Shown here piece after piece: positions 15,668-29,386 of a stretch of DNA of 64,000 bases; positions within the stretch are counted from its first letter, which is position 1, and each line of letters opens with the position of its first letter. Below the pieces are notes generated by a model. It saw only the letters and a program-made list of their open reading frames with translations. It was not told the DNA's origin and did no database searches. The DNA is from Sphingomonas sp. SUN039 (GTDB lineage Bacteria > Pseudomonadota > Alphaproteobacteria > Sphingomonadales > Sphingomonadaceae), in assembly GCF_024758725.1 (NCBI RefSeq), contig NZ_CP096972.1, positions 1,470,001 to 1,534,000 on the forward strand, read 5' to 3'. The position numbers were made by a program, and so were the translations under genes.

Positions 15668-18355
15668 TTACTGGAACTTGACCGTCGCCGACAGCGCGAG
15701 CGTCGTGCCCACCGAATAAGTGTTGATGTCGATGCGGTTGTTGCCCGAACGCTGGAATTCCTCGTGGCGCTGGCCGGTGATGTTGCGCGCCTCGAACTTC
15801 AGTTCGATTTCCTTGCCGAGCACTTCGATCCCCTCGCGTGCGACAAAATCGAGGCGGAAGCCGGGGCGTTCGATCACATCGGGCTGCGGCACCGAACCGT
15901 TGAGGCCGCGGCTGACGACACGGTTGCTGGCATAGCTCAGCAGAATCGTCTGTTGCGACAGACGGTCGGGATGTTCGAGGCCGATCTGGAGGTTGGCGAC
16001 ATGGTCCGACTGGCCGGTCAGCGGCCCCCCGTCGCGGAAATAGTCGGACGCCCTAGAGGAGAACGCCCCGAACACCGTGGTCGTGTCGCCCGCCGCCACT
16101 TTGATCTTCGATTTGGTGTAGGTGTAGTTCGCGGTCAGCACGATGCGGCGCTCGGCAAGGCTGCCCGATTTGAACAGCCCGTCGAGGTTGAAGTTCTTCT
16201 GCAACTCGAACTCGGCCCCGTACAGTGTCGCCGTGGGCGCATTAGCGAACGACGTGACAAGGTCGCCGCCGGTGATGAACGCCTCGATCGGTTTGTCGAT
16301 TTTCTTGTAGAACGCCGAAACCGACAGGCGCTGTTCGGGCGCGAAATACCATTCGAAGCGCCCTTCCGCATTATAGAGCTGGCTGTCCACCAGCAGCGGA
16401 TTGCCGCGGTACTGCCGGTTCGAATCGGGGTCGAAATACGGCTGGTTGATCAGTTCGCGGAATTGCGGACGGGCAATGGTCTTGGACGCGCTCACGCGCA
16501 CCTGCATGCCGTTGGCGACTTCCCAGGTCAGCGTTGCGGCGGGCAGCCAGTAGTTGCGCTTGAGGCTGGTTCCCGCCGTCGATGCGCCGGGTGTGGTGAA
16601 CACCTGGATCGGCGTGACCGTCTGTGTCGCACTCTCGTAGCGGACACCGGCATCGAGGCTTAGCGTGTCGGTGAACTTGGCGTTGACCTTCGCGTAGCCA
16701 GCGTAGTTTCGCAGGCGCGCGAAAAACGCCGGATTGCCTTCGTCGGTTTCGATCAGCGCGATCCGGAAAGCGTTGATCACGTTCGCGCCGAGCAGCAGGT
16801 CGGGCCGCAACAGGCCGACGCCGACCGGAAAATTGCTCGGTGCCTGAAACTGGAAATCGCGACGCGAGCTGGTGCGCTTGGTGTCCGACCACGCCCCGCC
16901 GACGGTCGCGCTCAGCCGGTCGTTGAACCGGTAGCTGAGATCGCCGCTCGCCGAATAAAGGTCTTCGTTGAGGTCCGAATAGGTGATGCGCGCATCGCCA
17001 CGGTTGCCGTTGTTCAGCGTGTTGATGAACAGAGCACCATAGGGATCGACGGCGGCGTTGGTGCGGACATATTCGAGGAACAACTCGCCCGGTGCCTCAC
17101 GCTGCGAATTGGCATAGGCGCCGCGCAGGTCGAGACTGAGGCCGTCGGCCAGCTTGAACTCGCCGACGAACTGCGAATTGATCAGCTGGCGTTCGTACCA
17201 GGCAGTCTTTTGCTGCATGTAATCGACGCCCGTCCCCTGCCGGTTGCCGAGCGACAGGCGTGCCTGCTTGATCGTGTCGCGGATATACAGGTTGGTGACG
17301 CGAATTTTGTTGGAGTCCCACTCATAGCCGAGACCGAGCAAGCCGTTCACGACGACGCGCTGGTCGGTGTTCACCTGGGTGAAGTTCGATTCGAGCGTCG
17401 AGACATCGGCGCTGAGCGAAGCCTGGTTGAGCGACTGGCGCGTGGTGTATTTGTTGCTGTAGCCTGCCGCGAGGATGATGCCGAGATCGCCTGCACCGAC
17501 CGCGAACGACCGGCCGCTGGTGATGTTGGCCGAGAAATTGGGCACAACCTGCCAACGCTGGACGACGGCATTCTGCCCCGTAACCAGGCCATTGGCGATC
17601 GCCGAGGTGTTGACGGTGCCCGAGCTGGTGCGTGCGCCGCTGCGGATGAAGGCGGCGAGCGGTGCAGGCATGTCGCGCACGCCATTGTCGAAGCCGGTAT
17701 TGTCCCAGCGCGCGCCGAAATAGCTATAGCCGACATGCCCGGTCGTTTCGCTGTCGCCCGACAGGCCGATGCCGATATTGAAGAACGGCTCACGCGGCAC
17801 AGCGCGGGTGGTCAGGTTGATCACGCCGCCGCCGAATTCGCCCGGGTAGTTCGCCGAATAGCTTTTCTGGACGAGCGACGACGCGATCACGCCGCTGGGG
17901 AAGATGTCGAGCGGGACGACGCGGCGCAGCGGTTCGGGGCTGGGCAATGGCGAGCCGTTGAGCAGCGCCAGCGAATAACGGTCACCGAGACCGCGCACAT
18001 AAACGAAACCGCTGCCGACGACGCTGAGGCCCGTAACGCGGCCCAGCGCGCCTGCGATATTGCCTTCGCCAGTCCGCGCGATTTCCGCCGTGCCGAGCAC
18101 CGACACGACCTGGTCCGACGTCTTGGCGATGTTACGGTCGCGGCGACCGGTCACGACGATCTCGTTCGCGCCGGGGGCCGAAATGTCGACTTCTTCCTGC
18201 GCCGGGAGTTCCGCCGCCGGCTCGGGTGCTGTCGCGGGCGCTTCGGCAGGCGGTGTTGTGCCGAGCGAGGTCGTCGCCTGGGCCAGCGCCAGCGACGGTG
18301 CCGCCAGCGCCGACGAAGCCAGCAGGATCCGCGCGAGGTGCAGCGGCTTCAACAT
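15668..18355 (-). CDS. TonB-dependent outer-membrane receptor of the T2SS locus
   Basis: The 895-residue product is a TonB-dependent receptor: signal peptide (residues 1-26), Ala/Pro-rich linker, TonB box EIVVTG (about 65-70), plug domain (RVTGLSVVGSGFVYVRGLGDRY, GEFGGGVINLTTR) and a 22-strand-type barrel ending in LSATVKFQ. ATG 18355 is preceded by GGGGGACCG. The substrate is unknown. It sits between the lipoprotein gene and gspC on the same strand. I recall a similar receptor/lipoprotein/T2SS neighbourhood in Caulobacter, where the lipoprotein ElpS is secreted by the T2SS under phosphate starvation; homology is not verified here. Confidence 0.88.
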   Translation of the reverse strand: MLKPLHLARILLASSALAAPSLALAQATTSLGTTPPAEAPATAPEPAAELPAQEEVDISAPGANEIVVTGRRDRNIAKTSDQVVSVLGTAEIARTGEGNIAGALGRVTGLSVVGSGFVYVRGLGDRYSLALLNGSPLPSPEPLRRVVPLDIFPSGVIASSLVQKSYSANYPGEFGGGVINLTTRAVPREPFFNIGIGLSGDSETTGHVGYSYFGARWDNTGFDNGVRDMPAPLAAFIRSGARTSSGTVNTSAIANGLVTGQNAVVQRWQVVPNFSANITSGRSFAVGAGDLGIILAAGYSNKYTTRQSLNQASLSADVSTLESNFTQVNTDQRVVVNGLLGLGYEWDSNKIRVTNLYIRDTIKQARLSLGNRQGTGVDYMQQKTAWYERQLINSQFVGEFKLADGLSLDLRGAYANSQREAPGELFLEYVRTNAAVDPYGALFINTLNNGNRGDARITYSDLNEDLYSASGDLSYRFNDRLSATVGGAWSDTKRTSSRRDFQFQAPSNFPVGVGLLRPDLLLGANVINAFRIALIETDEGNPAFFARLRNYAGYAKVNAKFTDTLSLDAGVRYESATQTVTPIQVFTTPGASTAGTSLKRNYWLPAATLTWEVANGMQVRVSASKTIARPQFRELINQPYFDPDSNRQYRGNPLLVDSQLYNAEGRFEWYFAPEQRLSVSAFYKKIDKPIEAFITGGDLVTSFANAPTATLYGAEFELQKNFNLDGLFKSGSLAERRIVLTANYTYTKSKIKVAAGDTTTVFGAFSSRASDYFRDGGPLTGQSDHVANLQIGLEHPDRLSQQTILLSYASNRVVSRGLNGSVPQPDVIERPGFRLDFVAREGIEVLGKEIELKFEARNITGQRHEEFQRSGNNRIDINTYSVGTTLALSATVKFQ

Positions 18356-18384
18356 TCTTCGGTCCCCCGGATATGGGTGCAGGC

Positions 18385-18414
18385 GCGGGAACAGCCGCAA
18401 CAGGCTGCTCCCGC
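18385..18414 (-). promoter_or_regulatory. Intercistronic hairpin between lipoprotein and receptor genes
   Basis: Near-perfect 12-bp stem (one mismatch) with a 6-nt loop: GCGGGAGCAGCC pairs with GGCTGTTCCCGC. There is no T-run. It lies between the lipoprotein stop (18435) and the receptor start (18355). It could protect the upstream mRNA or reduce read-through, giving more lipoprotein than receptor. Confidence 0.5.
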
Positions 18415-18434: not shown

Positions 18435-20036
18435 TCAGGTGGTCGGCAGCGACGTGCACGACGTCGAGCCCGTACCGAAATTCACCGTTGCGCTGTTGCA
18501 GGCCCAGCCCGCGTACCAGGTGTCGGTGCTGTTGCGGACGGCACCGATCCATGTCGTTGCATCGAAGAAGGTCGACAGCGCAGTCGCGTTGAACCCGGTC
18601 ACCGCTGTCTCGTTCGCGCCGTTGATGAACACGCTGGTCAGCGAGGGGGTGAAGGCATCGCTATTGAAGTTCGTCCCCGTCGCGAAAGCCGCCGCAACCT
18701 GCGCCGCCGTCAAGGTGCCCGAACCGAGATATTTGGTCGCGTTGCACTGGAGCACCACCGACCGCGCGGCGAGCGTCGCCGGGGTCGCCCCCGATCCGTT
18801 CATGCGGATGCATTCGTTGTTCGGCGACAGCAGGATGCCGTTCGCAAGCGTCGTGTCGGAATTGCCGCGGAACAGGCCCGCCGCGAGGTCGTTCGCCTCG
18901 TTATCGGCGCTCGCAACCGGCTGGATCGCAGTCCAGTTGACGACGTTGAGGCGCGTGCGCGGCGTATCGGTTTCGAGCCCGTTGCTGTCGATTTCGAACA
19001 GCGCATCGCCACGGCCCGAGCGGGGCAGCAACAGCGCATACTGAACGTTCATCTGCGCGCCGGTATCGACGTCGAGGCTGTCGTCGTCCGCGCCCGTCGC
19101 AATATAATATTTCAGGTTGACGCCGCCGCCGAAGAATTCGGCCCCGTCATCCGAACTGTTGTGCGACTGGATATGGTCGAGGGTCGTTCCAGTCCCGATC
19201 GCTTCTGTCGTCAGCGCCTGCAATTCGCGGTTCGCACCGAGGACAAAGCCCGAATAGCGGATCTGGACATAGCTCATGCGGCCCGCGTCATAGGCGTTGT
19301 TGGTGCCGCCGAAGCGCGCGAGGTCGGCCGCGCCTTCGGTGTCGCGCTCGCAGGTGTTCGACGCGACTGAACCGACGTTGCAGTCGGTGGTGACGCCGCG
19401 ACCCAGTAGCACGACGCCGCCCCACTGCCCCTGCGATGTATCGTCGTTGAGGCCGAGGATGTTGTCGCGGCTGGTAAAGACAATGGGCGCAGCAGCAGTG
19501 CCGATAGCGCTGATTTTGTTGCCGCGATTGACGGCAAGCCACGACTGACCGGTGTTACCGAACAGGATGACACCCGGATTGATCGTCAGCGTCACATTGG
19601 TGTCGGCGGTCAAAGGCGTAGTGCAGCCGACCGTCGTCGAGGTGACCGGAGCCGCCGCCGTCGGCGCGGTGAAGCCGCCGTCGCAACCGACGTTGACCCG
19701 GCCATTCATGGCATAGACCAGACCCGTGATCTTCGGCAGCGTGATCGACGTGCGGATGACCGACGGCAGCGTGCAGACACGATAGCTGCCAGTCGGACCC
19801 GAAATCGTGCCGCTGTCGGTGAGCCCCTGGGGATCGAGAATTGTCGGGCAGCCCGAGGCGGCGGCGACTGTGGTCGGAGTCGGGGTAGGTGTCGGGGTCG
19901 GTGCGGGCGTTACATTATTGATCGTCACATTGCCGCCGGTGCCGGGCGAGGCGATATCGCTGGCACCACATGCGGCGAGCGCCGCAAACGAGGCACCCGA
20001 CAGCATGACTTGAGTAAGGCGTTTGAACGAGGCCAT
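18435..20036 (-). CDS. Cys-rich, probably surface-exposed lipoprotein
   Basis: The 533-residue product has a lipoprotein signal peptide with lipobox LAAC (cysteine about residue 22), then a Thr-Pro repeat tether (PTPTPTPTPT) and a large domain rich in Asn, Thr and Gly. At least ten cysteines beyond the lipidated one suggest disulfides, so the protein folds outside the cytoplasm. Segments such as VTLTINPGVILFGNTGQSW and GQWGGVVLLG resemble right-handed beta-helix surface proteins. ATG 20036 has GGAG upstream. Position next to a TonB receptor and the T2SS suggests it is a T2SS client like Caulobacter ElpS (from memory, untested). Enzymatic function is unknown. Confidence 0.75.
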   Translation of the reverse strand: MASFKRLTQVMLSGASFAALAACGASDIASPGTGGNVTINNVTPAPTPTPTPTPTTVAAASGCPTILDPQGLTDSGTISGPTGSYRVCTLPSVIRTSITLPKITGLVYAMNGRVNVGCDGGFTAPTAAAPVTSTTVGCTTPLTADTNVTLTINPGVILFGNTGQSWLAVNRGNKISAIGTAAAPIVFTSRDNILGLNDDTSQGQWGGVVLLGRGVTTDCNVGSVASNTCERDTEGAADLARFGGTNNAYDAGRMSYVQIRYSGFVLGANRELQALTTEAIGTGTTLDHIQSHNSSDDGAEFFGGGVNLKYYIATGADDDSLDVDTGAQMNVQYALLLPRSGRGDALFEIDSNGLETDTPRTRLNVVNWTAIQPVASADNEANDLAAGLFRGNSDTTLANGILLSPNNECIRMNGSGATPATLAARSVVLQCNATKYLGSGTLTAAQVAAAFATGTNFNSDAFTPSLTSVFINGANETAVTGFNATALSTFFDATTWIGAVRNSTDTWYAGWACNSATVNFGTGSTSCTSLPTT

Positions 20037-20142
20037 AGTATCTCCGCTCCGGCGCACCGGCTTCGAGTGAATATCGAGGTTGCGGAGATGGCCGACTCAC
20101 CCGGCCCCCTTTTCCGCCCCGCCGGTCGGTTAGGCGGGACGT

Positions 20143-20214: not shown

Positions 20215-20353
20215 TTAGAGTTTGATCACGCCAAGCTGATTTTTTCTTCGAGCGTCAGCGAGATAACGCTCTCAGCCTGAGAGAGTTCTCGCTACCGCTC
20301 GAACGAGCTTCTCGCTGGCGCTCGAAGAAGAAGAACCTGAAAACATGCTCTAA
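20215..20353. repeat. Structured 139-bp intergenic repeat element
   Basis: Bounded by inverted TTAGAG (20215-20220) and CTCTAA (20348-20353). Inside are three copies of TCTCGCTNNCGCTCGAA: one inverted (20247-20263) and two direct (20287-20303, 20310-20326). The outer copies form 20-bp arms (20244-20263 and 20310-20329, one mismatch). Extra hairpins are GCTCGAACGAGC (20297-20308) and CTCTCAG/CTGAGAG (20269-20283). The right end supplies the stop codon of the exporter gene at 20350. It looks like a REP or MITE-like repeat and separates the T2SS and sulfonate loci. No ORF is present in 20037-20349. Confidence 0.7.
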
Positions 20354-21399
20354 ACGAGCAGCAACGCCGCCCCGAGCGCCAGCACGAACGACACGATCGT
20401 CGCGGCGATGACCGGCATCGATGCGCGCCAGCCCTGTTCGAGCAGCAGGTTCATCGGCGAGCGGATGCCGGTCGCGGTGACAGCGAGCAGGAGCAGCGCG
20501 GTGGCGGTCGGTTTGGCGATGTCGAGCACCGGCTGCGGGAGCGTGACGAGCGAGTGCAGCGCACATAGCGCAAGGAAGCCCAACACGAACCACGGCACGC
20601 CGACGCCGCTGCGCTTCACACCGTCTTCGTCGCGATAGGCATAAGCGACCACCGCCAGCGCGGGCGCGAGCAGGGCCACGCGGGTGAGCTTCACGACTGT
20701 CGCGGTCGCGCCCGCCTCGGGCGAATAGCTGTAGCCCGCCCCCAATGCCTGCGCGACGTCGTGGATCGACGCCCCCATCAGGAACCCCGCCTGCCGGTCG
20801 GTGAGGTGCAGCATGTGCGCGAGCGCGGGATAGAGCGACATCGCAAGCGCGCTCGCCGCTGAAACTGCGACCAGAACAAGTGTCAGCTGGGCCTGCGACG
20901 CGCGCTTCTCGCCGAGCACGCTCGACAGCGCCAGCGCAGCTGACGCACCGCAAATTGCGACAGCGCCGCCCGCCAAAGTGCCGAACGCCGCGCCGCGCCC
21001 GATCCATTTCGACATGACGGTGCCGCTCAACGTCACCAGCGCAACCATTGTGGCAATCGCGGCAAAGGCGGGCACGCCCAGACCGGCAATCTGGCCGAAC
21101 GTCACTTGCAACCCGACGAGCACAATGCCCCAGCGCAACAGGGTCTTCGAAGCGAACCCCAGCCCCGCGTGGAGCCGCGCATCGGCATTGGCGAAATTGA
21201 ACGCGAGGCCGATCAGCAGCCCCATCAGCATTATCGGCGCACTATAATGTTCGGAGAGATACGCCGCCGCCAGCGACGCAATCCCGGTCAGCAGCAGGCC
21301 AGGCAGATAGGCGCGAACGCCCTGCCGCTCGGCGGGCGCGGTGTCCAACACGTCGCCGTACAGGTCGGCGGCCAGCGGCAAGCGCCGCGTATCGCTCAC
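20350..21399 (-). CDS. YeiH-family putative sulfate/sulfite exporter
   Basis: The UPF0324/YeiH family comprises ~10-helix membrane proteins annotated as putative anion or sulfate exporters. The 349-residue product has family blocks GLLIGLAFNFANADARLHAGLGFASKTLLRWGIVLVGLQV (only partly quoted features), AICGASAALALSSVL and GASIHDVAQALGAGYSY. GTG 21399 is chosen; it starts 8 bases after the stop of the upstream MFS gene, with TGAGGG before it. As the last gene of an arm with a sulfonate-sugar signature, it plausibly exports sulfite released by the monooxygenase. That role is inference; biochemical proof for the family is thin. Confidence 0.82.
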   Translation of the reverse strand: MSDTRRLPLAADLYGDVLDTAPAERQGVRAYLPGLLLTGIASLAAAYLSEHYSAPIMLMGLLIGLAFNFANADARLHAGLGFASKTLLRWGIVLVGLQVTFGQIAGLGVPAFAAIATMVALVTLSGTVMSKWIGRGAAFGTLAGGAVAICGASAALALSSVLGEKRASQAQLTLVLVAVSAASALAMSLYPALAHMLHLTDRQAGFLMGASIHDVAQALGAGYSYSPEAGATATVVKLTRVALLAPALAVVAYAYRDEDGVKRSGVGVPWFVLGFLALCALHSLVTLPQPVLDIAKPTATALLLLAVTATGIRSPMNLLLEQGWRASMPVIAATIVSFVLALGAALLLV

Positions 21400-21406
21400 G
21401 CAACCC

Positions 21407-22690
21407 TCAGTGCGCAGCGACCGGCGTCGACCCTGCATCGGGTGCGCGACGGATTACGGGAATGAACAGTTGAAGCCATCCGAGCGCCAACAGATAGGAG
21501 AAACCGGCAAAGACGAACAGCGGCAAATAGCCGAGCCCAGCCCCGAGCACGGCGGCCGTGACGGGCTGGATCAGGCCGCCGCCGACATTGCCGACAAACG
21601 CGCCGAATGCAGTCAGCCGCGCGACCTTCGCCCGCGGGGCGATGTCGGTGATCGTCGAGAAGATGCTGAGCGAAAAACCCTGATGCCCCGCGAGCACAAA
21701 GGCCATCATGATCGCGACCGGCCAGAATTGCCCGATATACAGAACGAACGGAACCGGGAGCACGACCAGCGCCGAGGCGAGCATCACGCCCTTTCTGACC
21801 CGGTTGAGGTTCCAACCGCGATCGAGCAGTCGGGTCGACAGCCAGCCCCAGAAGAAGGCGCCGACGCCCGAACCGATGAAGGCGATTGCCATCGCGACGG
21901 CAAGATCGGTACCCTTCAGCCCGAAAGTCTTTCGATAGAAATCGGGCAGCCAGTAAAGCATCAGCCACCAGGTCGCGTCCGACAGCGCTTTCGCGACCGC
22001 AATGCCCCACGTCTGGCGATTGGCGAGGATCGGGCCATAGCTGTCGCCCGTCGTGCCGCCGTCGGCAACGACCGTTTCGTGGCCGTCGTCGACCTTGATC
22101 GTTCCGAACGCGCCCAGCCACAGCACGATGATGACGATCCCGCTGAGTCCGGCCAGAATGAAAGCCCCGCGCCACCCGACCAGGCTTTCGAGCCAGGGAA
22201 TGACGAACGGCATCGATACCAGCCCCACCGCTGCGATCAGGGTTAGCAAACCGACCGCGAACGACCGCCGGTCCGGCTCGAACAGGGTCGAAATCGTCTT
22301 GATATTCAGCGGCGTGCCCATCGACTCGGTCGCACCGAGCCCGATCCGGCAAGCGATGAACTGCCACATGCTCGACGCCCAGCCATGCGCAGCGGCGGCA
22401 ATGCTCCAGGCGCCGACGCCCACAACGTTGCCCCATTTCACGCCCAGCCGGTCGACCAGCCAGCCAGTGAACAGGAAGGCGGCGGCCGATGCATATTGGA
22501 AATAGGCGGCGAGATTGGCGTAGTCTTGGTCGGTCCAGCCGAGATCGCCAGACATCTCGAACTTCAGCAACGCAATGATCTGACGATCCATTGCGTTCGA
22601 AATCCCCGCAAGCGCGAGAATGACGAACAGGATCCAGCGACGTGCCGGGGTCAGGAGCGTAGGAGCCCCGCCGCTCCCGACCCCGGCCAC
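21407..22690 (-). CDS. MFS transporter, hexuronate/anion:cation symporter-like
   Basis: A 427-residue, 12-helix major facilitator with the N-terminal DRQIIALLKFEM motif typical of ACS-family (ExuT-like) transporters. Other segments are GWLVDRLGVKWGNVVGVGAWS (loop 2-3 motif) and RIGLGATESMGTPLNIKTI. The GTG start at 22690 is three bases after the receptor stop, so it belongs to the same operon. ACS members carry organic anions such as hexuronates, so import of an anionic sugar such as sulfoquinovose or its glycoside is reasonable, though not shown. Confidence 0.85.
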   Translation of the reverse strand: MAGVGSGGAPTLLTPARRWILFVILALAGISNAMDRQIIALLKFEMSGDLGWTDQDYANLAAYFQYASAAAFLFTGWLVDRLGVKWGNVVGVGAWSIAAAAHGWASSMWQFIACRIGLGATESMGTPLNIKTISTLFEPDRRSFAVGLLTLIAAVGLVSMPFVIPWLESLVGWRGAFILAGLSGIVIIVLWLGAFGTIKVDDGHETVVADGGTTGDSYGPILANRQTWGIAVAKALSDATWWLMLYWLPDFYRKTFGLKGTDLAVAMAIAFIGSGVGAFFWGWLSTRLLDRGWNLNRVRKGVMLASALVVLPVPFVLYIGQFWPVAIMMAFVLAGHQGFSLSIFSTITDIAPRAKVARLTAFGAFVGNVGGGLIQPVTAAVLGAGLGYLPLFVFAGFSYLLALGWLQLFIPVIRRAPDAGSTPVAAH

Positions 22691-22693
22691 GCC

Positions 22694-25081
22694 TTATTTG
22701 CTCCCGAAATTGAAGCGCGCTGTCACGCCGAAATAACGGTCGGCATCGCGCGGGATTTGATAGAGCAGCGTGCCGCCCGGTCCGCCTGTCCCGATCGTCG
22801 ACGGGTAGGCATTGCCGAGCACGTTCTTTACGATGAACGACACCCGGTATTTGTCGTCGGCACCGACCGCCGCCAGCGTGAAGTCGATCTGCTCATAGGC
22901 AGGGATCGTAACTGCGCTTTGCGTCTGAATCTGCGCGACCGTGTTCAGCGCCTGCAGCTGCGACAGTTGCTTGTCGGTGAAGGTTGCCTGCGCGCCGAGT
23001 TCGATGCCGAAGGGCAGCGAGGCCGGTTCGATGGTGTACGTCACACCCAGCGAACCTTTGAACTTCGGCGCGAAGGCGAGCGGCGTTCCCGGCAGGATCG
23101 CATTGCCAGCCTGGGCGGCGGGTGGCGGGTTGAACGCATCGACGCGCGCCTCGGCATAGGCGATGCCGCCGCTGATCGTGAAGTTGCGCGACGGGCGCAC
23201 CAGCCAGTCGGCCTCGAACCCGCGGCTCGACACGTCGCCCGCATTTATGATCGTCGTCGTCACCGCGCCGTTGACGGTCGTGGGGAAGTTCGACTGGTAA
23301 TTCTTCACCTTCACGTAAAATCCGGTGAGGTTCAGGATCACGCGACCGCCGAACATGCTGTTCTTCAGACCGACTTCGAACGAGTCGGACAGCTCTGGCG
23401 CGATCGGCGCGGTGTTGAAGAACTGCATGTTGAAGAACGTATTGAACGCAGGTCCCTTATAGCCGCGTGCATAGCTGGCATAGACCATGTGGTCGGGGTT
23501 GATGTTGTAATTCAGCGCGACCTTGCCCGACAGGTTATTGGCGCTGGTTGACGCGGTAAACGGCACGCCGTTGGCACCGGTACCGGTGGAGTTGAGCGCC
23601 GCATTGACACCGGCGTCGAACGCTGCACCGATCCCCGCCGGAGCACCGACGCCCGGGAACGTGGTTCCGGTGAAGTTGGTGGTACGGATATGGTCGGTGC
23701 TGACATTATCGTGCGTGTAGCGCAGACCCGCGATCAGCTTCAGCTGCTGCGAAATGTGCAGCGTGCCCTGGCCGAAGAATGCGTAGTTTTCGAAGATCGA
23801 TCCGAAATCGGCAGTACCGCGCGGATTGACGATGGTCGAGCCTGCCGGGCACGGGATGAGCCCACTGGGCAGCGCCACGCCGGTCGATGCGGTGCAATAA
23901 GTGTCGGTACGCGTAAAAATGCGCCGTGCCTTCGCCTTATAATAGAACGCCCCGAGGACATAGTCGAAGGTGTCGCTGACCGGCGAGGTCAGGCGCAGTT
24001 CCTGCGTGAACGTCGACGAACGCTGCGGGCCATCATCATAGATCAGCGGAATCGTCGTATAGACCTGATCGACCCAGCTGCCGTCGCGGATCTCGGTGTT
24101 GTTCCACTTGCGATACGAGGTGATCGAGGTCAGCGTGTGCTCGCCGAGCGACAGGTCGGCCTGCAGCGATGCGCCCCAGGTTTCCTCGGTCGTGCGCGTG
24201 TTGCGGCTCTGGACGATGCGACGGGTGTCGGCACCCTGGATCGGCGCGAGCACCGCCGTCACCGCGGGAATCGTCGCGGCGGTCGGGTTCAGCGCGCCCA
24301 CGACAAAGGCACAGCAATCGTCATCGGCGCGGCGGTAATCGGCCAGCACCTTGATCCGCAGTGCGTCGGTCAGCTGGCCGATGAGCTGCAACCGGCCGCC
24401 GTAGTGCAGATACCCGTTCACATATTGCCGCGTCGTCGCATTGTAGAGATTACCGTCGTAGTTGCCGTAGAAGCCGGTGATCCCCGCCTTCCAGTTTTCG
24501 CCGATCGGGCCGCCGATCGACGCCTTGGCCTTGAACTCGCTGCGGTCGAAATAGCCGACATCGACATAGCCACCCAGCGTGTCGCCGGGTTCGCGCGTGA
24601 CGATGCTGACGACACCGGCCGAGGCGTTCTTGCCGAACAGCGTGCCCTGCGGACCGCGCAGCACTTCGATGCGCTCGATGTCGTAAAGGTCGCCGAACGC
24701 CTCGCCCGCGCGCGCCAGCACGACGCCGTCGAGCACTGCCGACACGCTGGGCTCGGCCGCGATCGAGAAATTGGTGGTACCCAGACCGCGCAGGAACAGC
24801 GCGGAGTTGAGGCCCGTCGTCCCCTTGACGAAGGTCAGCGCGGGGACGAGCCGCGTCGAATCCTCGATGTTGTTTGTCGACAGGCGTTGCAGATCCTTGC
24901 CGCTCACGACCGACACCGCGACCGGCACGTCCTGCAGACGCTCGGTGCGCTTTTGCGCGGTAACGACGATTTCGGTGGGCGCGCCGTCATCGGCAGCCGG
25001 TGCAGGCGTCTGCGCGAGCGCGGGGCTGGCGGCGATCATCGCGAAACCGGCGGTACCTGCCAGCATCAGGGTCTTGGTCAT
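22694..25081 (-). CDS. TonB-dependent receptor of the sulfonate-sugar locus
   Basis: The 795-residue product has a signal peptide (1-24), TonB box EIVVTAQKR (37-45), plug domain (VPVAVSVVSGKDLQ, LFLRGLGT, DIERIEVLRGPQGTLFGKNASAG) and a barrel ending RYFGVTARFNFGSK. ATG 25081 follows a strong AGGAAGGAAGA. It is second in an operon behind a Gfo/Idh/MocA gene, with an operator 20 nt upstream of that gene. It would bring a ligand too large or scarce for porins across the outer membrane, for example sulfoquinovosyl glycerides. Substrate is inferred from context only. Confidence 0.88.
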   Translation of the reverse strand: MTKTLMLAGTAGFAMIAASPALAQTPAPAADDGAPTEIVVTAQKRTERLQDVPVAVSVVSGKDLQRLSTNNIEDSTRLVPALTFVKGTTGLNSALFLRGLGTTNFSIAAEPSVSAVLDGVVLARAGEAFGDLYDIERIEVLRGPQGTLFGKNASAGVVSIVTREPGDTLGGYVDVGYFDRSEFKAKASIGGPIGENWKAGITGFYGNYDGNLYNATTRQYVNGYLHYGGRLQLIGQLTDALRIKVLADYRRADDDCCAFVVGALNPTAATIPAVTAVLAPIQGADTRRIVQSRNTRTTEETWGASLQADLSLGEHTLTSITSYRKWNNTEIRDGSWVDQVYTTIPLIYDDGPQRSSTFTQELRLTSPVSDTFDYVLGAFYYKAKARRIFTRTDTYCTASTGVALPSGLIPCPAGSTIVNPRGTADFGSIFENYAFFGQGTLHISQQLKLIAGLRYTHDNVSTDHIRTTNFTGTTFPGVGAPAGIGAAFDAGVNAALNSTGTGANGVPFTASTSANNLSGKVALNYNINPDHMVYASYARGYKGPAFNTFFNMQFFNTAPIAPELSDSFEVGLKNSMFGGRVILNLTGFYVKVKNYQSNFPTTVNGAVTTTIINAGDVSSRGFEADWLVRPSRNFTISGGIAYAEARVDAFNPPPAAQAGNAILPGTPLAFAPKFKGSLGVTYTIEPASLPFGIELGAQATFTDKQLSQLQALNTVAQIQTQSAVTIPAYEQIDFTLAAVGADDKYRVSFIVKNVLGNAYPSTIGTGGPGGTLLYQIPRDADRYFGVTARFNFGSK

Positions 25082-25133
25082 CGGTCTTCCTTCCTGCGTG
25101 ATGCGCGGCCTGTGGCCGTCGCCTTTTGTGTCG

Positions 25134-26210
25134 TTAGAAACCCAGTTCACTCATCTCGACAACGCGGTGTTCGCGCGCGCTGATTTCGGCGGCGGTACCG
25201 ATGGCAACCGCCATCATCCCGTCGGTCGCGGTCACTTCTACCGGCGTTTCACCCTTCACCGCTGCACAGAATTTCTGATGCTGGTAAAAGGTCGCGCCAT
25301 GGTGGTGCCCGGCATTCAGCGCATGGGCCTCGACCGCGACATGTTCGCGCGTCACCGCCTTGGGCTGATGGAAACCGGTGCGTGGGGAAAACACCAGGTC
25401 GCCGGTCGGAATCAGGCAGTCGAGCCGCGCCTTGTCGCCGACCGCAGTGATCTCTTCCTGGTTCTCCGCCCCTTCCGCAAACATCGACAGGTCGAGCATC
25501 GCGCGGACGCCATTGGCGAAGTCCACGGTCGTGTAGCTGTTGTCGATGATGTCGGGCGTGCGGCCGTCGTAGCGCTCGTCGAGATGGTTCACATCCATCG
25601 CGCCCGAACAATAGACGCGCACTGCCTCGGCACCCACGATCAAGCGCATCAGGTCGAAGAAATGGCAGCATTTTTCGACCATTGTGCCGCCGGTGTTGGC
25701 GCTGAAGCGGTTCCAGTCGCCGACCTTCGGCAGGAAGGGAAAACGGTGCTCGCGGATGCTCAGCATCTGCAACCTGCCGGTGCGTCCGTCATGCACCTGC
25801 CGCACGAACTCGGCGGCGGGCGGCATGAAGCGATACTCCATGGCGGTCCAGAAGATGCCCGGCGATTGAGCGGCACGCTCGACGATCCAGCGCGCGTCCT
25901 CGAGCGTCGTCGCGACCGGCTTTTCGCAAAGGATGTTCAACCCCGCATCAAGCAACGGCTCCAGCACGTCGCGGTGGGTGTAATTCGGGCTGGCCACGAT
26001 GACCGCGTCGAGCTCTGCTTTCGCCAGTTCCATGCTGCTGCCGAAGACCTGCGGGTTAGCCTCGGCCCCCAGCGCGCCTTTTGCCCAGCCGAGCGACGTC
26101 CCCACTGGATCGGCGAGCGCGACGATCTCCGCACCCGGCGTAATCGCGACATTGTTGATGTGCTCGACGCCCATCATGCCGGTACCCACAAGGCCGTAGC
26201 GCAACGTCAT
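25134..26210 (-). CDS. Gfo/Idh/MocA family protein; candidate NAD-dependent sulfoquinovosidase (GH188-like)
   Basis: The 358-residue product has a Rossmann fold with GLVGTGMMG (7-14) and CEKPVATT (lysine 97), and a C-terminal domain with GGTMVEKCCHFFD (His183, Asp186), the usual Gfo/Idh catalytic region. ATG 26210 has a strong GGGAGAG site. It leads the receptor-MFS-exporter arm. I recall GH188, a family of NAD+-dependent sulfoquinovosidases with a Gfo/Idh-like fold found in sulfoquinovose loci; that would fill the missing glycosidase step, since no GH31 is present. A plain sugar dehydrogenase is the alternative. Family is certain; GH188 membership is not verified. Confidence 0.75.
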   Translation of the reverse strand: MTLRYGLVGTGMMGVEHINNVAITPGAEIVALADPVGTSLGWAKGALGAEANPQVFGSSMELAKAELDAVIVASPNYTHRDVLEPLLDAGLNILCEKPVATTLEDARWIVERAAQSPGIFWTAMEYRFMPPAAEFVRQVHDGRTGRLQMLSIREHRFPFLPKVGDWNRFSANTGGTMVEKCCHFFDLMRLIVGAEAVRVYCSGAMDVNHLDERYDGRTPDIIDNSYTTVDFANGVRAMLDLSMFAEGAENQEEITAVGDKARLDCLIPTGDLVFSPRTGFHQPKAVTREHVAVEAHALNAGHHHGATFYQHQKFCAAVKGETPVEVTATDGMMAVAIGTAAEISAREHRVVEMSELGF

Positions 26211-26230
26211 CGTCTCTCCCGATCGCCATT

Positions 26231-26246
26231 TATGACAGCGATGTCT
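26231..26246. promoter_or_regulatory. LacI-type operator, left arm
   Basis: TATGACAGCGATGTCT, with the palindrome GACA-NCGN-TGTC around a central CG, as in LacI/GalR operators. The exact reverse complement is at 27377-27392. This copy lies 20 nt upstream of ATG 26210 and in the 136-bp divergent region before the regulator gene. Confidence 0.85.
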
Positions 26247-26346
26247 GAAAGCGCTCTTCGCACGGACGGATACGCTTCTGCAAGGCCCGAGATTCGTTGC
26301 ATGGAGCGGTGTTGCGCGGTTACAACAATGCCGACAGGGGAAGCCG

Positions 26347-27351
26347 ATGGCATCGCGCAACACGATCAACGACGTCGCGAAAGCAGCGGGCGTGTCGATC
26401 AAGACGGTCAGCCGTGTCCTTAACAAGGAACGCTATGTCCGCGCCGATACGCGCGCCAAGGTCGAGGCGGCGATGGCAGCACTGTCGTTTTCACCCAGCC
26501 TTGCCGCGCGGTCGCTGGCGGGGAAAAGGTCGCACCAGATTGCGCTGATCTATGACAACCATTCGCCCTATTACATCCATGCCGTGCAGGAGGGCGTGTG
26601 GGCGCGGTGCCGCGAGGCAGAGGTGCGGATGCTCGCGCAGCCGGCCGATGTCGCCTCGCCGACGATCGCGGCGGAGGTCGGCGGGCTGATCGACGAAACG
26701 CATGTCGACGGAATCATTCTGTCGTCGCCGGTCACCGACTGTCCGCAGGTGCTCGACGAACTCGAACGCCGCGGCATCCCGTTCGTCCGGATTTCGCCCG
26801 GCACCAACCACGCGCTGACCTCTTCGGTGTATATGGACGATGTGCAGGCGGCGGATGACATGACGACGCACCTGATCAACCTCGGTCACCGCGTCATCGG
26901 TTTCATCGTCGGCCACCCCAACCATATGGCGAGCGAGCAGCGCCTGTTCGGTTACCGCCGCGCGCTCGACCGCGCGGGCATCGCCTATGAGCCGGGGCTG
27001 GTCCACCCCGGCGAGTTCGACTTCGCGAGCGGCGTGGTCGCAGCACATTCACTGCTCAGCTACCCCCGCCGCCCGACCGCGATTTTCGCTTCGAACGACG
27101 ACATGGCGGCAGGTGTGCTGACGGTGGCGCACAGCAAAGGATTGGCCCTGCCCGACGACCTGTCGGTGGCGGGTTTCGACGACACCCCCCTCGCACAACT
27201 CGTCTGGCCCCCGCTGACGACAATCCGCCAACCGACCCGCGATCTGGCGCACGCGGCAGCCTCATTGCTGTTCGAAAAGCTCGACGGGGTCGAACACCGG
27301 CGGTTGCAGCACGAACTGGTTGTGCGAGGGAGCACTGCGCGGGTGGCTTGA
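26347..27351 (+). CDS. LacI-family transcriptional regulator of the sulfonate-sugar locus
   Basis: The 334-residue product has a LacI helix-turn-helix at the N-terminus (TINDVAKAAGVSIKTVSRVLN), hinge helix SLAARSLAGKRS and a periplasmic-binding-like sugar domain (IALIYDN, GIILSSPVTDC, IFASNDDMAAGVL, SVAGFDDTPLAQLVWPPLTTIRQP). ATG 26347 follows AGGGGAAG. It is divergent from the Gfo/Idh operon and upstream of the AKR gene. Both arms carry an identical 16-bp operator, so it most likely represses both until an inducing sugar binds. The effector is unknown. Confidence 0.92.
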   Translation: MASRNTINDVAKAAGVSIKTVSRVLNKERYVRADTRAKVEAAMAALSFSPSLAARSLAGKRSHQIALIYDNHSPYYIHAVQEGVWARCREAEVRMLAQPADVASPTIAAEVGGLIDETHVDGIILSSPVTDCPQVLDELERRGIPFVRISPGTNHALTSSVYMDDVQAADDMTTHLINLGHRVIGFIVGHPNHMASEQRLFGYRRALDRAGIAYEPGLVHPGEFDFASGVVAAHSLLSYPRRPTAIFASNDDMAAGVLTVAHSKGLALPDDLSVAGFDDTPLAQLVWPPLTTIRQPTRDLAHAAASLLFEKLDGVEHRRLQHELVVRGSTARVA

Positions 27352-27378
27352 CCCCGCCCCCCTCTCCGCGCCTATAAG
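27348..27378 (+). promoter_or_regulatory. Promoter of the AKR-monooxygenase arm
   Basis: TTGACC at 27348-27353 overlaps the lacI stop codon. The -10-like CTATAA (27372-27377) or TATAAG (27373-27378) lies 18-19 nt downstream. The -10 abuts and overlaps the operator at 27377, so a bound repressor would block polymerase. Confidence 0.6.
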
Positions 27379-27392
27379 ACATCGCTGTCATA
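27377..27392. promoter_or_regulatory. LacI-type operator, right arm
   Basis: AGACATCGCTGTCATA is the exact reverse complement of 26231-26246. It overlaps the -10 and predicted start of transcription, 18 nt upstream of ATG 27411. Equal placement in both arms supports control by one regulator. Confidence 0.85.
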
Positions 27393-27410
27393 CCGGAGCG
27401 CGTACAGAAT

Positions 27411-28325
27411 ATGTCCACCCTGCCCCCTGTTCCCGCGACACGCCTGCTCGGCAAGAGCGGCATTGTCGTGTCGTCGATGGCCTGGGGCATGTGGCGCTTT
27501 GCCGGGCGCAGCGTTGCCGAGGCGCGGACACTGGTCGAGGCGGCGCTCGACAGCGGCATTACACTGCTCGACACCGCCGACATCTACGGCTTCGACGGCA
27601 AGGGCGGGTTCGGCAATGCCGAGGCGCTGCTCGGGCAAGTGTTCGCCGAGGCCCCTGCCCTGCGCGACCGGATGGTGCTGGCGACCAAGGGCGGGATCAT
27701 GCCGCCGCTGCCCTATGATAGTTCGCCCGCCTATCTCGACACCGCGCTCGACGCCTCGCTCAAGCGTATGGGCGTACACCGCGTCGACCTCTACCAGATC
27801 CACCGGCCCGACATCCTGACCCATCCGCACGAGATCGCGAAGTTTGCGGAGAAAGCCTATGCGCTCGGCAAGATCGGCGCGTTCGGCGTGTCGAACATGA
27901 CGGTAGCGCAGACCGCGGCGCTGCTGGCGTTCATGCCGCGCGATTTGCCGCTGTCGACGATCCAGCCCGAACTATCGCCGCTGTGCCTCGATGCCATCAC
28001 CGATGGGACACTCGACCTCGCGCTCCAGCACAATCTCGCCCCGATGGCTTGGTCGCCGTTGGGCGGCGGGCGCATCGCGAGTCCGACCGACGCCCGCGCG
28101 ACAGCCGTTGCCGCTGCGCTCGACGCCGTCGCACAGACGCACGGCGTATCGCGCACGGCAGCAACCTATAGCTGGATCATGGCGCATCCTGCGCGCCCCA
28201 TTCCCATTGTCGGGTCGCAGCAAGTCGACCGCATCCGCGAGGCAGCGGACGCGTACAAGGTCACCTGGACGCGTGAGGACTGGTACAAGGTACTGGTCGC
28301 GTCGCGCGGGGAGAAATTGCCATGA
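27411..28325 (+). CDS. Aldo-keto reductase; candidate 6-dehydroglucose reductase (SmoB-like)
   Basis: The 304-residue (alpha/beta)8 protein has the AKR tetrad Asp54, Tyr59 (LLDTADIYG), Lys93 (ATKGG) and His131 (YQIHRPD). C-terminal VGSQQVDRIREAADA binds the NADPH phosphate region in related enzymes. It overlaps the SsuD-like monooxygenase gene by four bases (ATGA). That pairing is the signature of monooxygenase-type sulfoquinovose catabolism, where SmoB reduces 6-dehydroglucose to glucose. The specific substrate is inferred; the family is clear. Confidence 0.82.
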   Translation: MSTLPPVPATRLLGKSGIVVSSMAWGMWRFAGRSVAEARTLVEAALDSGITLLDTADIYGFDGKGGFGNAEALLGQVFAEAPALRDRMVLATKGGIMPPLPYDSSPAYLDTALDASLKRMGVHRVDLYQIHRPDILTHPHEIAKFAEKAYALGKIGAFGVSNMTVAQTAALLAFMPRDLPLSTIQPELSPLCLDAITDGTLDLALQHNLAPMAWSPLGGGRIASPTDARATAVAAALDAVAQTHGVSRTAATYSWIMAHPARPIPIVGSQQVDRIREAADAYKVTWTREDWYKVLVASRGEKLP

Positions 28326-29386
28326 CGTCACCGGTGGAAGTCAGCTGGTTCTCGGCACTGTGCGACGACGATTACGAATTTCTGGGGCAACCAGACCCTG
28401 CGCTGGCTTCGAGCTGGGAGCATTGCCGCAATATCGTGTTGACCGCCGAAAAAGGCGGGTTCGACAACATCCTGTTGCCGAGCGGTTACCAGCTCGGGCT
28501 CGACACGACTGCGTTCGCCGCAGCGATTGCTGCACTGACGAGCCGCATCCGCCTGCTGATGGCGGTCCGCATCGGCGAGAGCTGGCCGCCGCAATTGGCA
28601 CGCCAGATCGCAACGCTCGACCGCATTACGGGCGGGCGGATGACGATCAATATCATCTCGTCCGACCTGCCCGGCGAAAAGCTGGCGAGCGCGCCGCGTT
28701 ACGCCCGCACGCTCGAGGTCATGCAGATCCTGAAGGCGCTGCTCAACGGCGAGCACCTGGTCCATCACGGCGAACACTATGATATCGAGATCGATCCGCC
28801 CCGCATGACGACGGTCGGCGGCAAATGCCCGCCGCTGTATTTCGGCGGCCTGTCGGAGGATGCGCGCGAAGCTGCCGCGCAGGGGTGCGACGTCTATCTG
28901 ATGTGGCCCGACACCATGCCCGCCGTCCGCGAGATTATCAGCGACATGCGCGCCCGTGCTGCGCGGCATGGCCGGACGCTCAAATTCGGCTACCGCGCCC
29001 ACGTCATCGTCCGCGAGACCGAGAGCGAAGCGCGCGCCTATGCGTCACGGCTGCTGTCGAAGCTCGATGCCGATACCGGCGACGCGATCCGCGCCAAATC
29101 GCTCGATTCGACCAGCGTCGGCGTTCAACGCCAGGCAGAATTGCGCGCATCGGCGGGCGACGAGGGTTTCGTCGAGGACAATCTGTGGACCGGCATCGGT
29201 CGTGCGCGTTCGGGTTGCGGTGCCGCCATTGTCGGCGATCCCGGTCAGGTGTTGGCGAAACTGCGCGCCTATCAGGCCGAGGGGATCGAAGCGTTCATCC
29301 TGTCAGGCTATCCACACGCCGCAGAAGCAGACCTGTTCAGCCGACATGTGCTGCCGCATCTCGACCATGGCCCGTTGATGCTGTAA
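28322..29386 (+). CDS. SsuD-like FMNH2-dependent sulfonate monooxygenase; candidate sulfoquinovose monooxygenase (SmoC-like)
   Basis: A 354-residue bacterial-luciferase-like (LLM) TIM barrel. Conserved SsuD positions are visible: Arg225 and His227 in GYRAHVIVRET, Arg296 in RARSGCG and Tyr330 in FILSGYPH, nearly the numbering of E. coli SsuD. SsuD enzymes cleave C-S bonds of alkanesulfonates with reduced FMN and O2, releasing sulfite and an aldehyde. With a coupled AKR and the shared operator, the likely substrate is sulfoquinovose rather than a simple alkanesulfonate. The partner flavin reductase is not in this locus and must be supplied elsewhere. Confidence 0.85.
   Translation: MTSPVEVSWFSALCDDDYEFLGQPDPALASSWEHCRNIVLTAEKGGFDNILLPSGYQLGLDTTAFAAAIAALTSRIRLLMAVRIGESWPPQLARQIATLDRITGGRMTINIISSDLPGEKLASAPRYARTLEVMQILKALLNGEHLVHHGEHYDIEIDPPRMTTVGGKCPPLYFGGLSEDAREAAAQGCDVYLMWPDTMPAVREIISDMRARAARHGRTLKFGYRAHVIVRETESEARAYASRLLSKLDADTGDAIRAKSLDSTSVGVQRQAELRASAGDEGFVEDNLWTGIGRARSGCGAAIVGDPGQVLAKLRAYQAEGIEAFILSGYPHAAEADLFSRHVLPHLDHGPLML

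What the first reader, a model, noticed from the sequence alone, without database searches (positions are those of the whole stretch)
20350..29386. Candidate oxidative sulfoquinovose desulfonation locus with a full uptake-to-export set
One regulator and one operator sequence unite an SsuD-like monooxygenase with intact catalytic residues, a coupled aldo-keto reductase, a Gfo/Idh/MocA protein, a TonB receptor, an MFS carrier and a YeiH exporter. Established: SsuD-type plus AKR is the core of the monooxygenase sulfoquinovose route (SmoC/SmoB), giving glucose and sulfite. I also recall NAD-dependent sulfoquinovosidases (GH188) with a Gfo/Idh-like fold. Inference: this arrangement is a sphingomonad version with its own outer-membrane uptake and sulfite exporter.
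Basis: partly seen in the sequence, partly recalled or inferred. Interest (0 to 1): 0.92.

Follow-up and report, generated by a model that had tools for sequence, protein, structure and literature searches.

The report
Sphingomonad sulfosugar (sulfoquinovose) breakdown gene cluster
This stretch of a sphingomonad chromosome most likely lets the bacterium take up plant sulfolipid sugar (sulfoquinovose), cut it free, and strip off its sulfur to give glucose and sulfite; the pathway is already known, and this is a well-preserved further example with its own uptake, control and export genes.

Summary
20350-29386 carries GH188-TonB receptor-MFS-YeiH on the minus strand and, divergently, LacI then aldo-keto reductase-monooxygenase. 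A 16-base operator lies before both arms; its 12-base core occurs at no third place in the genome.

The monooxygenase separates from SsuD/MsuD by a fully supported branch and shares stretches with two solved chains that I recall as SmoC. The Gfo/Idh protein is nearest to solved NAD-dependent sulfoquinovosidases (SqgA, GH188) and keeps 8 of 8 checked active-site residues. Of 298 genomes of its family, 39 have a close GH188 copy and 38 of these also SmoC. No GH31 was found in the genome, and its only YeiH is here.

It is not new in kind. Sulfo-SMO is published for Novosphingobium, GH188 in sulfo-SMO clusters is published, and a Sphingomonas strain is in that figure's legend. No flavin reductase lies in the locus. 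Function is inferred from sequence; nothing was assayed.

New from this work: among 49 SmoC loci GH188 and GH31 never occur together and mostly share one slot (at least 4 changes on the SmoC tree), and a second sphingomonad group pairs GH188 with a TauD-type dioxygenase.

The parts
20350..21393 (-). YeiH/PF03601 membrane protein, probable sulfite (or sulfate) exporter; the exact start codon is uncertain
   Evidence: PF03601 1e-58; TIGR00698 118.6 bits, below its cut-off 232.6; the only PF03601 found in the genome; a gene annotated 'putative sulfate exporter', 41-44% identical, also sits in Rhizobium/Roseicitreum SmoC clusters
21407..22690 (-). MFS carrier, probable inner-membrane uptake of SQ or SQ-glycerol
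   Evidence: MFS_1 2.1e-41; best NCBIfam hit is TIGR00893 D-galactonate transporter, below cut-off
22694..25081 (-). TonB-dependent receptor, probable outer-membrane uptake of SQ glycosides
   Evidence: PF00593 and PF07715; a relative of this receptor is within 9 kb of SmoC in 46 of 49 named loci
25134..26210 (-). GH188 NAD-dependent sulfoquinovosidase (SqgA type)
   Evidence: Best solved matches 8qc2 and 8qc3, which PMC10755693 names FlSqgA and ArSqgA; 8 of 8 checked active-site residues kept
26231..26246 (.). LacI-type operator before the GH188/TBDR/MFS/YeiH genes
26347..27351 (+). LacI-family regulator
   Evidence: PF00356 and PF13377
27377..27392 (.). Second copy of the operator, before the AKR/SmoC genes
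   Evidence: kept upstream of the AKR in relatives
27411..28325 (+). Aldo-keto reductase, SmoB/SquF role (6-dehydroglucose to glucose)
   Evidence: PF00248 8e-51; best solved match 7bbz; within 1.2 kb before SmoC in 48 of 49 named loci
28322..29386 (+). FMNH2-dependent sulfoquinovose monooxygenase (SmoC/SquD)
   Evidence: Best solved matches 7oh2 and 7olf, 54% identity, against 37% to E. coli SsuD 1m41; tree

Best explanation
The locus is a LacI-controlled pair of divergent gene sets for oxidative breakdown of sulfoquinovose (SQ) and its glycosides. The TonB receptor brings the sulfosugar, probably SQ-glycerol, through the outer membrane, and the MFS carrier takes it into the cytoplasm (both inferred). 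The GH188 enzyme frees SQ by transient oxidation at C3 with bound NAD+ (inferred from family and conserved residues). The monooxygenase, with FMNH2 and O2, breaks the C-S bond to give sulfite and 6-dehydroglucose; the aldo-keto reductase makes glucose (inferred from family). YeiH exports the sulfite (inferred). LacI represses both arms through the shared operator until an SQ-derived ligand releases it (operator shown; repression and ligand inferred). FMNH2 must come from a flavin reductase elsewhere in the genome, for example the RutF-like protein (inferred).
For: Solved-structure matches; 8 of 8 checked GH188 residues; the SmoC side of a 100/100 branch against SsuD/MsuD; co-occurrence of close GH188 and SmoC in 38 of 39 genomes, 36 within 5 kb, Fisher p 5e-25 (from; relatedness not corrected for); shared operator and its footprint in relatives; no GH31 and a single PF03601 found in the genome; the same enzyme set with a YeiH-type exporter in Rhizobium and Roseicitreum plasmids; glycerol kinase within 7 kb of SmoC in 5 of 33 GH31-type relatives and next but one to it in N. 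pentaromativorans pLA3.
Against: No flavin reductase in the locus, and no SsuE-type one found in the genome (the only PF03358 hit is WrbA; that SsuE belongs to PF03358 is recalled). The AKR is only about 36% identical to the AKRs of the Rhizobium and Roseicitreum clusters. YeiH scores under the TIGR00698 cut-off and is present in only 2 of 13 GH188-type relatives. That 7oh2/7olf and 7bbz are SmoC and SmoB is recalled, not shown by a call. No activity or growth data.
Confidence: 0.88

Rival explanations
1. The cluster serves a related sulfosugar (for example sulfofucose) or an SQ-bearing glycoside other than SQ-glycerol, with the same enzyme types.
For: Residues conserved in GH188 bind the sulfonate and ring hydroxyls, which does not by itself prove the sugar; a sulfofucose pathway is reported (PMC12421959, seen only as a search listing with the start of its abstract).
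Against: GH188 residues match enzymes assayed on SQ glycosides; SmoC-type monooxygenase plus AKR is the published SQ pair.
Confidence: 0.07
2. A general alkanesulfonate monooxygenase (SsuD/MsuD) for sulfur supply, beside unrelated sugar oxidoreductases.
For: NCBIfam ranks it nearest to TIGR03565 SsuD, though at 263 bits against a cut-off of 518.
Against: Tree and residues; GH188 or GH31 within 9 kb in 46 of 49 SmoC loci; a LacI gene goes with the operator across loci.
Confidence: 0.03
3. The Gfo/Idh protein is a sugar dehydrogenase (inositol type), not a glycosidase.
For: TIGR04380 inositol 2-dehydrogenase is the top NCBIfam hit, 122.5 bits against a cut-off of 355.
Against: 345 bits to SqgA 8qc2 against 86 to the best inositol dehydrogenase; all eight checked SqgA residues kept.
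Confidence: 0.03

Closest known systems
Sulfo-SMO / sulfo-ASMO pathway of Novosphingobium aromaticivorans (SquD, SquF; Liu et al. 2021 as reported in PMC9594981, passages)
   Same: SmoC-type monooxygenase plus AKR; no flavin reductase (SsuE) in the cluster; also a sphingomonad
   Different: Found by mining gene clusters with the sulfoquinovosidase YihQ (a GH31 enzyme); the window has GH188, and no GH31 was found in its genome. Its sequences were not compared here
GH188 sulfo-SMO clusters (PMC10755693, parts 1-3 of 4 read; Roseobacters, and Sphingomonas sp. Leaf17 in the legend of Figure 5)
   Same: GH188 with the sulfo-SMO enzymes; the plasmid examples also carry a YeiH-type exporter
   Different: Searches show a GntR regulator, a TRAP transporter and a flavin reductase gene; the window has LacI, TonB receptor and MFS, and no flavin reductase
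Agrobacterium tumefaciens smo cluster (SmoA-SmoI; gene list recalled)
   Same: SmoC/SmoB chemistry
   Different: GH31 sulfoquinovosidase and ABC transporter there (an SQGro ABC transporter is mentioned in PMC9594981; the rest recalled)
Sulfo-SDO / sulfo-ASDO pathway (SqoD dioxygenase; PMC12890257, passages)
   Same: Also gives sulfite and 6-dehydroglucose, then glucose
   Different: Uses an iron/alpha-ketoglutarate dioxygenase instead of SmoC; a possible form of it is seen here only in other sphingomonads (L142-L153)

Membership tests
GH188 (NAD-dependent sulfoquinovosidase, SqgA) | Close relation to the solved SqgA enzymes rather than to other Gfo/Idh/MocA proteins | tested here: met
   345 and 341 bits to 8qc2 and 8qc3, 327 to 8zn9 (unnamed putative oxidoreductase), then 86 bits; 8qc2 and 8qc3 named SqgA in PMC10755693
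GH188 (NAD-dependent sulfoquinovosidase, SqgA) | Active-site residues Lys107, Tyr136, Arg166, Leu170, Lys172, Glu189, His193, His321 of ArSqgA | tested here: met
   Window K97, Y126, R156, L160, K162, E179, H183, H303 (letters; residue list; positions placed by reading the alignment). Glu163, also named in the paper, was not checked
GH188 (NAD-dependent sulfoquinovosidase, SqgA) | NAD+-dependent cleavage of alpha- and beta-sulfoquinovosides | not testable with these tools
   Needs purified enzyme
Sulfo-SMO pathway | SQ monooxygenase (SmoC/SquD) distinct from SsuD | tested here: met
   One 100/100 branch parts 1m41 and 7jv3 from the window, 16 loci and 7oh2/7olf; that 7oh2/7olf are SmoC is recalled; the assayed N. 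aromaticivorans SquD was not in the tree
Sulfo-SMO pathway | 6-dehydroglucose reductase (SmoB/SquF) gene with it | tested here: met
   AKR overlaps SmoC by 4 bases; best solved match 7bbz (SmoB identity recalled); AKR just before SmoC in 48 of 49 loci. Identity to the rhizobial AKR is only 36%
[quoted passage not shown]
   None in 20350-29386; candidates elsewhere in the genome. PMC9594981 says N. aromaticivorans also lacks SsuE, and PMC13372026 calls a genome positive on SmoB plus SmoC, so this is not a necessary feature
Sulfo-SMO pathway | Growth on SQ with release of sulfite or sulfate | not testable with these tools
   -
YeiH-type sulfite/sulfate exporter (PF03601 / TIGR00698) | Family membership by profile | tested here: inconclusive
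   PF03601 199 bits, over cut-off; TIGR00698 118.6 bits, under its cut-off 232.6
YeiH-type sulfite/sulfate exporter (PF03601 / TIGR00698) | Export of sulfite | not testable with these tools
   -

The most novel reading that the evidence does not exclude
In sphingomonads oxidative sulfoquinovose use is a modular system with two exchangeable parts: the glycosidase (GH188 or GH31, never both among 49 loci, mostly in the same slot between TonB receptor and reductase, with at least four changes on the SmoC tree) and the desulfonating enzyme (SmoC, or a TauD-type dioxygenase paired with a more distant GH188 and a sodium:solute symporter). The window is a complete GH188/SmoC form with a dedicated TonB receptor and a single LacI operator sequence in front of both arms. 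This would include an alphaproteobacterial sulfo-SDO pathway, which the passages I could read place in Gammaproteobacteria.
Probability: 0.6. Interest if true: 0.5.

Novelty: new member of a known kind. Interest (0 to 1): 0.42.

Why it matters
Sulfoquinovose is made on a scale put at 10 billion tons a year (PMC10755693), and 13C-SQ experiments point to Novosphingobium, with Agrobacterium, as main users in freshwater samples (PMC13372026, passages). A compact GH188/SmoC cluster in a single-contig genome gives testable parts that the printed passages I could read do not describe: the outer-membrane receptor, the inner-membrane carrier, the repressor and its operator. The swap of GH188 for GH31 gives a natural comparison of why two unrelated glycosidases are exchanged: GH188 cuts alpha and beta glycosides, GH31 only alpha (PMC10755693).

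Tried and rejected
Genome-wide operator sites as a regulon: 15 of the 17 sites of GACANCGNTGTC lie outside the locus; 11 are inside a frame of at least 120 aa, three lie between genes (672369, 1724910, 3489957; the second also inside an antisense frame) and one (960820) had no frame that passed the filter. I recognised no sulfosugar gene beside the three, but made no family search on those neighbours. The site at 2514754 near the only PF03358 hit looked like a remote SmoA, but it is inside another gene and the protein is WrbA.

First SmoC tree with own-genome paralogues was discarded: paralogue rows were taken from frames that mostly do not match SmoC and gave branches of 4 to 10. One search leaves them out; its tblastn shows that of the seven other luciferase-like loci fetched (of eight found) none is near SmoC (best 30% over 149 residues).

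Operator in GH31-type clusters: of 38 loci with LacI directly before the AKR (36 GH31, 2 with the SQase not on the contig), 0 reach 9 of 10 in front of the AKR; between receptor and GH31 only scattered weaker copies were seen. The control point of those clusters was not found.

Paper search for PDB codes 7OH2, 7OLF, 7BBZ and 7BC0 gave nothing useful, so their identity as SmoC/SmoB stays recalled. Paper search was too wide (7,386 papers, 5 listed, none of those with sulfoquinovosidase) and says nothing. Structure prediction was not run: the matches to solved enzymes made it unnecessary.
Full report
WHAT IS THERE. The window is bases 1470001-1534000 of a single-contig genome of 3,528,835 bases. 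Seven intact genes fill 20350-29386. On the minus strand, reading away from the regulator: Gfo/Idh/MocA protein (25134-26210), TonB-dependent receptor (22694-25081), MFS carrier (21407-22690) and YeiH/PF03601 (20350-21393), with gaps of 52, 3 and 13 bases. Divergently, on the plus strand: LacI (26347-27351), aldo-keto reductase (27411-28325) and luciferase-like monooxygenase (28322-29386), the last two overlapping by 4 bases. Pfam confirms every family.

THE OPERATOR. The stretch TATGACAGCGATGTCT at 26231-26246 recurs as its reverse complement at 27377-27392; in 20,000 random pairs of window stretches of the same lengths a shared word of 16 occurred once. The pattern GACANCGNTGTC has 17 sites in the genome against 6 for the reversed control; only the two sites in the locus have the core GACATCGCTGTC. 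In related loci I scored the 140 bases around the AKR start (grouping done by reading its rows). Where a LacI relative lies within 9 kb and is not directly in front of a GH31-type or untyped AKR, 16 of 16 loci reach at least 9 of 10 fixed bases. Of 17 loci with no detected LacI relative, 2 do, and both of those contigs are cut short on the side where LacI could lie. Of 38 loci with LacI directly before the AKR in GH31-type or untyped clusters, 0 do. Random 140-base stretches of the same loci reach it in 1.7%. So one regulator and one operator do unite the two arms.

THE GLYCOSIDASE. The Gfo/Idh protein matches 8qc2 (345 bits), 8qc3 (341 bits) and 8zn9 (327 bits, a putative oxidoreductase), then drops to 86 bits for an inositol dehydrogenase. 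PMC10755693 (I read parts 1-3 of 4) gives 8QC2 as FlSqgA and 8QC3 as ArSqgA, founders of GH188. Of the ArSqgA residues that the paper places around SQ, eight were checked: Lys107, Tyr136, Arg166, Leu170, Lys172, Glu189, His193 and His321 are K97, Y126, R156, L160, K162, E179, H183 and H303 in the window, 8 of 8 (positions read from the alignment, letters; Glu163 not checked). PMC11465081 (part 1 of 2 read) gives Arg166, Leu170 and Lys172 as the sulfonate site. No GH31 was found in the genome, so GH188 is its only candidate sulfoquinovosidase.

THE MONOOXYGENASE AND REDUCTASE. The monooxygenase is 54% identical to 7oh2 and 7olf and 37% to E. coli SsuD 1m41. 7oh2 and 7olf carry the names alkanesulfonate monooxygenase and methanesulfonate sulfonatase; that they are the SmoC structures is recalled. 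Supporting this, DNA encoding close 7oh2 relatives (86-87%) on Rhizobium and Roseicitreum plasmids sits in clusters Gfo/Idh-GntR-SmoC-AKR-flavin reductase-TRAP-sulfate exporter, where the Gfo/Idh protein has all eight GH188 residues. In the tree of 21 rows one branch with support 100/100 separates 1m41 and 7jv3 from the window protein, 16 related loci and 7oh2/7olf. The window shares with 7oh2/7olf, and not with SsuD/MsuD, the stretches S-x-Y-x-x-G-x-D-T, M-W-P and G-R-A-R-S-G-C-G. The reductase is best matched by 7bbz/7bby (SmoB, recalled), but only 36% identical to the AKRs of the Rhizobium and Roseicitreum clusters; its role rests mostly on its place.

COMPANY ACROSS GENOMES. Of 298 genomes of the family, 63 have a GH188 relative at E <= 1e-60 and 78 a SmoC at E <= 1e-110; the tool scored at most six candidates per genome. 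They divide sharply: 39 have GH188 at 65% identity or more, 38 of them also SmoC (36 within 5 kb on one contig, 2 on different contigs); 24 have GH188 at 37-55%, none with SmoC; 40 of 78 SmoC genomes have no GH188 (second match of G279 left out). Of 80 named loci, 49 have 9 kb on both sides of SmoC: a relative of the receptor in 46, of the MFS carrier in 29, GH188 in 13, GH31 in 33, both in 0, neither in 3 (within 9 kb of SmoC, not genome-wide); AKR just before SmoC in 48 and a LacI relative within 9 kb in 39. Five proteins of the GH31 slot, all that were tested, hit PF01055. GH31 lies between receptor and AKR in 28 of 33, GH188 in 12 of 13; all 13 GH188 genes are on the minus and all 33 GH31 genes on the plus strand, so by strand GH188 goes with the receptor and GH31 with the AKR and SmoC. 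On the SmoC tree of 63 rows (window and 62 loci with at least 4.5 kb before SmoC and a known SQase; 22 GH188, 41 GH31; 15 shorter loci and 3 without SQase left out) well-supported branches force at least four changes. These loci are the best-scoring 80 of at least 554, so they are not a random sample.

WHAT IS MISSING OR VARIABLE. No flavin reductase lies in the locus, and none like the rhizobial one within 7 kb in any of the 49 loci (a weak 32% hit only in L116, not one of the 49). The genome holds two PF01613 proteins, one RutF-like (137.5 bits, under cut-off 254.75) and one fused to a hydrolase, and one PF03358, which is WrbA. PMC9594981 (passages read) says that N. aromaticivorans lacks SsuE in its cluster. 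YeiH is the only PF03601 found in the genome but a relative is within 10 kb of SmoC in only 22 of 49 loci, 2 of 13 of the GH188 kind. A SorA-like sulfite dehydrogenase lies elsewhere (449 bits, under cut-off 600), so sulfite may also be oxidised. Glycerol kinase lies within 7 kb of SmoC in 5 of 33 GH31-type loci and close by in Novosphingobium pentaromativorans pLA3, which fits SQ-glycerol as a substrate; none of the 13 GH188-type loci and no part of the window has such a match.

HOW IT WORKS. Shown: gene content, residues, shared and conserved operator, linkage. Inferred from families: uptake by TonB receptor and MFS, NAD-dependent glycoside cleavage, C-S cleavage to sulfite and 6-dehydroglucose, reduction to glucose, sulfite export, LacI repression. 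Not shown: any activity, the inducer, the flavin reductase used.

KNOWN OR NEW. The sulfo-SMO route is reported for Novosphingobium aromaticivorans and Agrobacterium tumefaciens (PMC9594981, PMC12890257, passages; the Agrobacterium paper, asked for by a recalled DOI, and a Roseobacter paper were not held; the N. aromaticivorans paper was not looked up). Novosphingobium genomes related to 13C-SQ users are predicted to carry it (PMC13372026, passages). GH188 in sulfo-SMO clusters is reported, and Sphingomonas sp. Leaf17 is named in the legend of the gene-cluster figure, though the legend does not say which pathway it stands for. So this is a new member of a known kind. Searches for sulfoquinovose with TonB, sphingomonads or Novosphingobium listed no paper whose title or shown abstract describes the receptor or operator; subscription papers and supplements were out of reach. 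The sphingomonad TauD-GH188 loci would extend sulfo-SDO beyond the Gammaproteobacteria named in passages of PMC12890257 and PMC13372026; one search found no such report, but PMC10755693 lists further alphaproteobacterial clusters without stating their pathway in the legend, so a printed precedent is not excluded.

Noticed in passing
L142-L153 (12 genomes of the window's family): A more distant GH188 (36-54% identity, all eight checked active-site residues kept) lies with a TauD-family dioxygenase and a sodium:solute symporter in 12 of 12 loci, with an aldo-keto reductase in 7 of 12 and GH42 in 5 of 12; none of the 24 genomes with such a GH188 has SmoC at E <= 1e-110 (12 of the 24 fetched). Candidate sulfo-SDO pathway in sphingomonads.
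   Followed up: partly
L043-L122: GH188 and GH31 sulfoquinovosidases do not occur together in 49 SmoC loci and mostly take the same slot; at least four changes on the SmoC tree.
   Followed up: partly
L158:10093-13133; also L046, L049, L094, L102, L122: Glycerol kinase, in some with glycerol-3-phosphate dehydrogenase, within 7 kb of SmoC in GH31-type clusters, as expected for growth on SQ-glycerol.
   Followed up: partly
L156:2207-9059 (Rhizobium sp. WSM4643 plasmid): A SmoC of the sphingomonad kind (75%) stands beside a LacI gene and a sugar ABC transporter, with no aldo-keto reductase annotated or matched next to it.
   Followed up: no
G007:C1:12533-13423 and 2821299-2822018: In one genome (86% complete, 7% contaminated) the SmoC match is in two pieces near the two ends of a single contig, one with an in-frame TGA; a broken gene or an assembly fault.
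   Followed up: no
genome 1724910 and 3489957 (L131, L136): Two further LacI-like palindromes with AT-rich flanks lie between genes; probably operators of other regulators.
   Followed up: no
window 15668-18397 and 18435-20039, minus strand: A second TonB receptor (nearest TIGR01782, under its cut-off) and a 534-aa protein with no Pfam or NCBIfam match lie just beyond YeiH; not counted as part of the locus.
   Followed up: no
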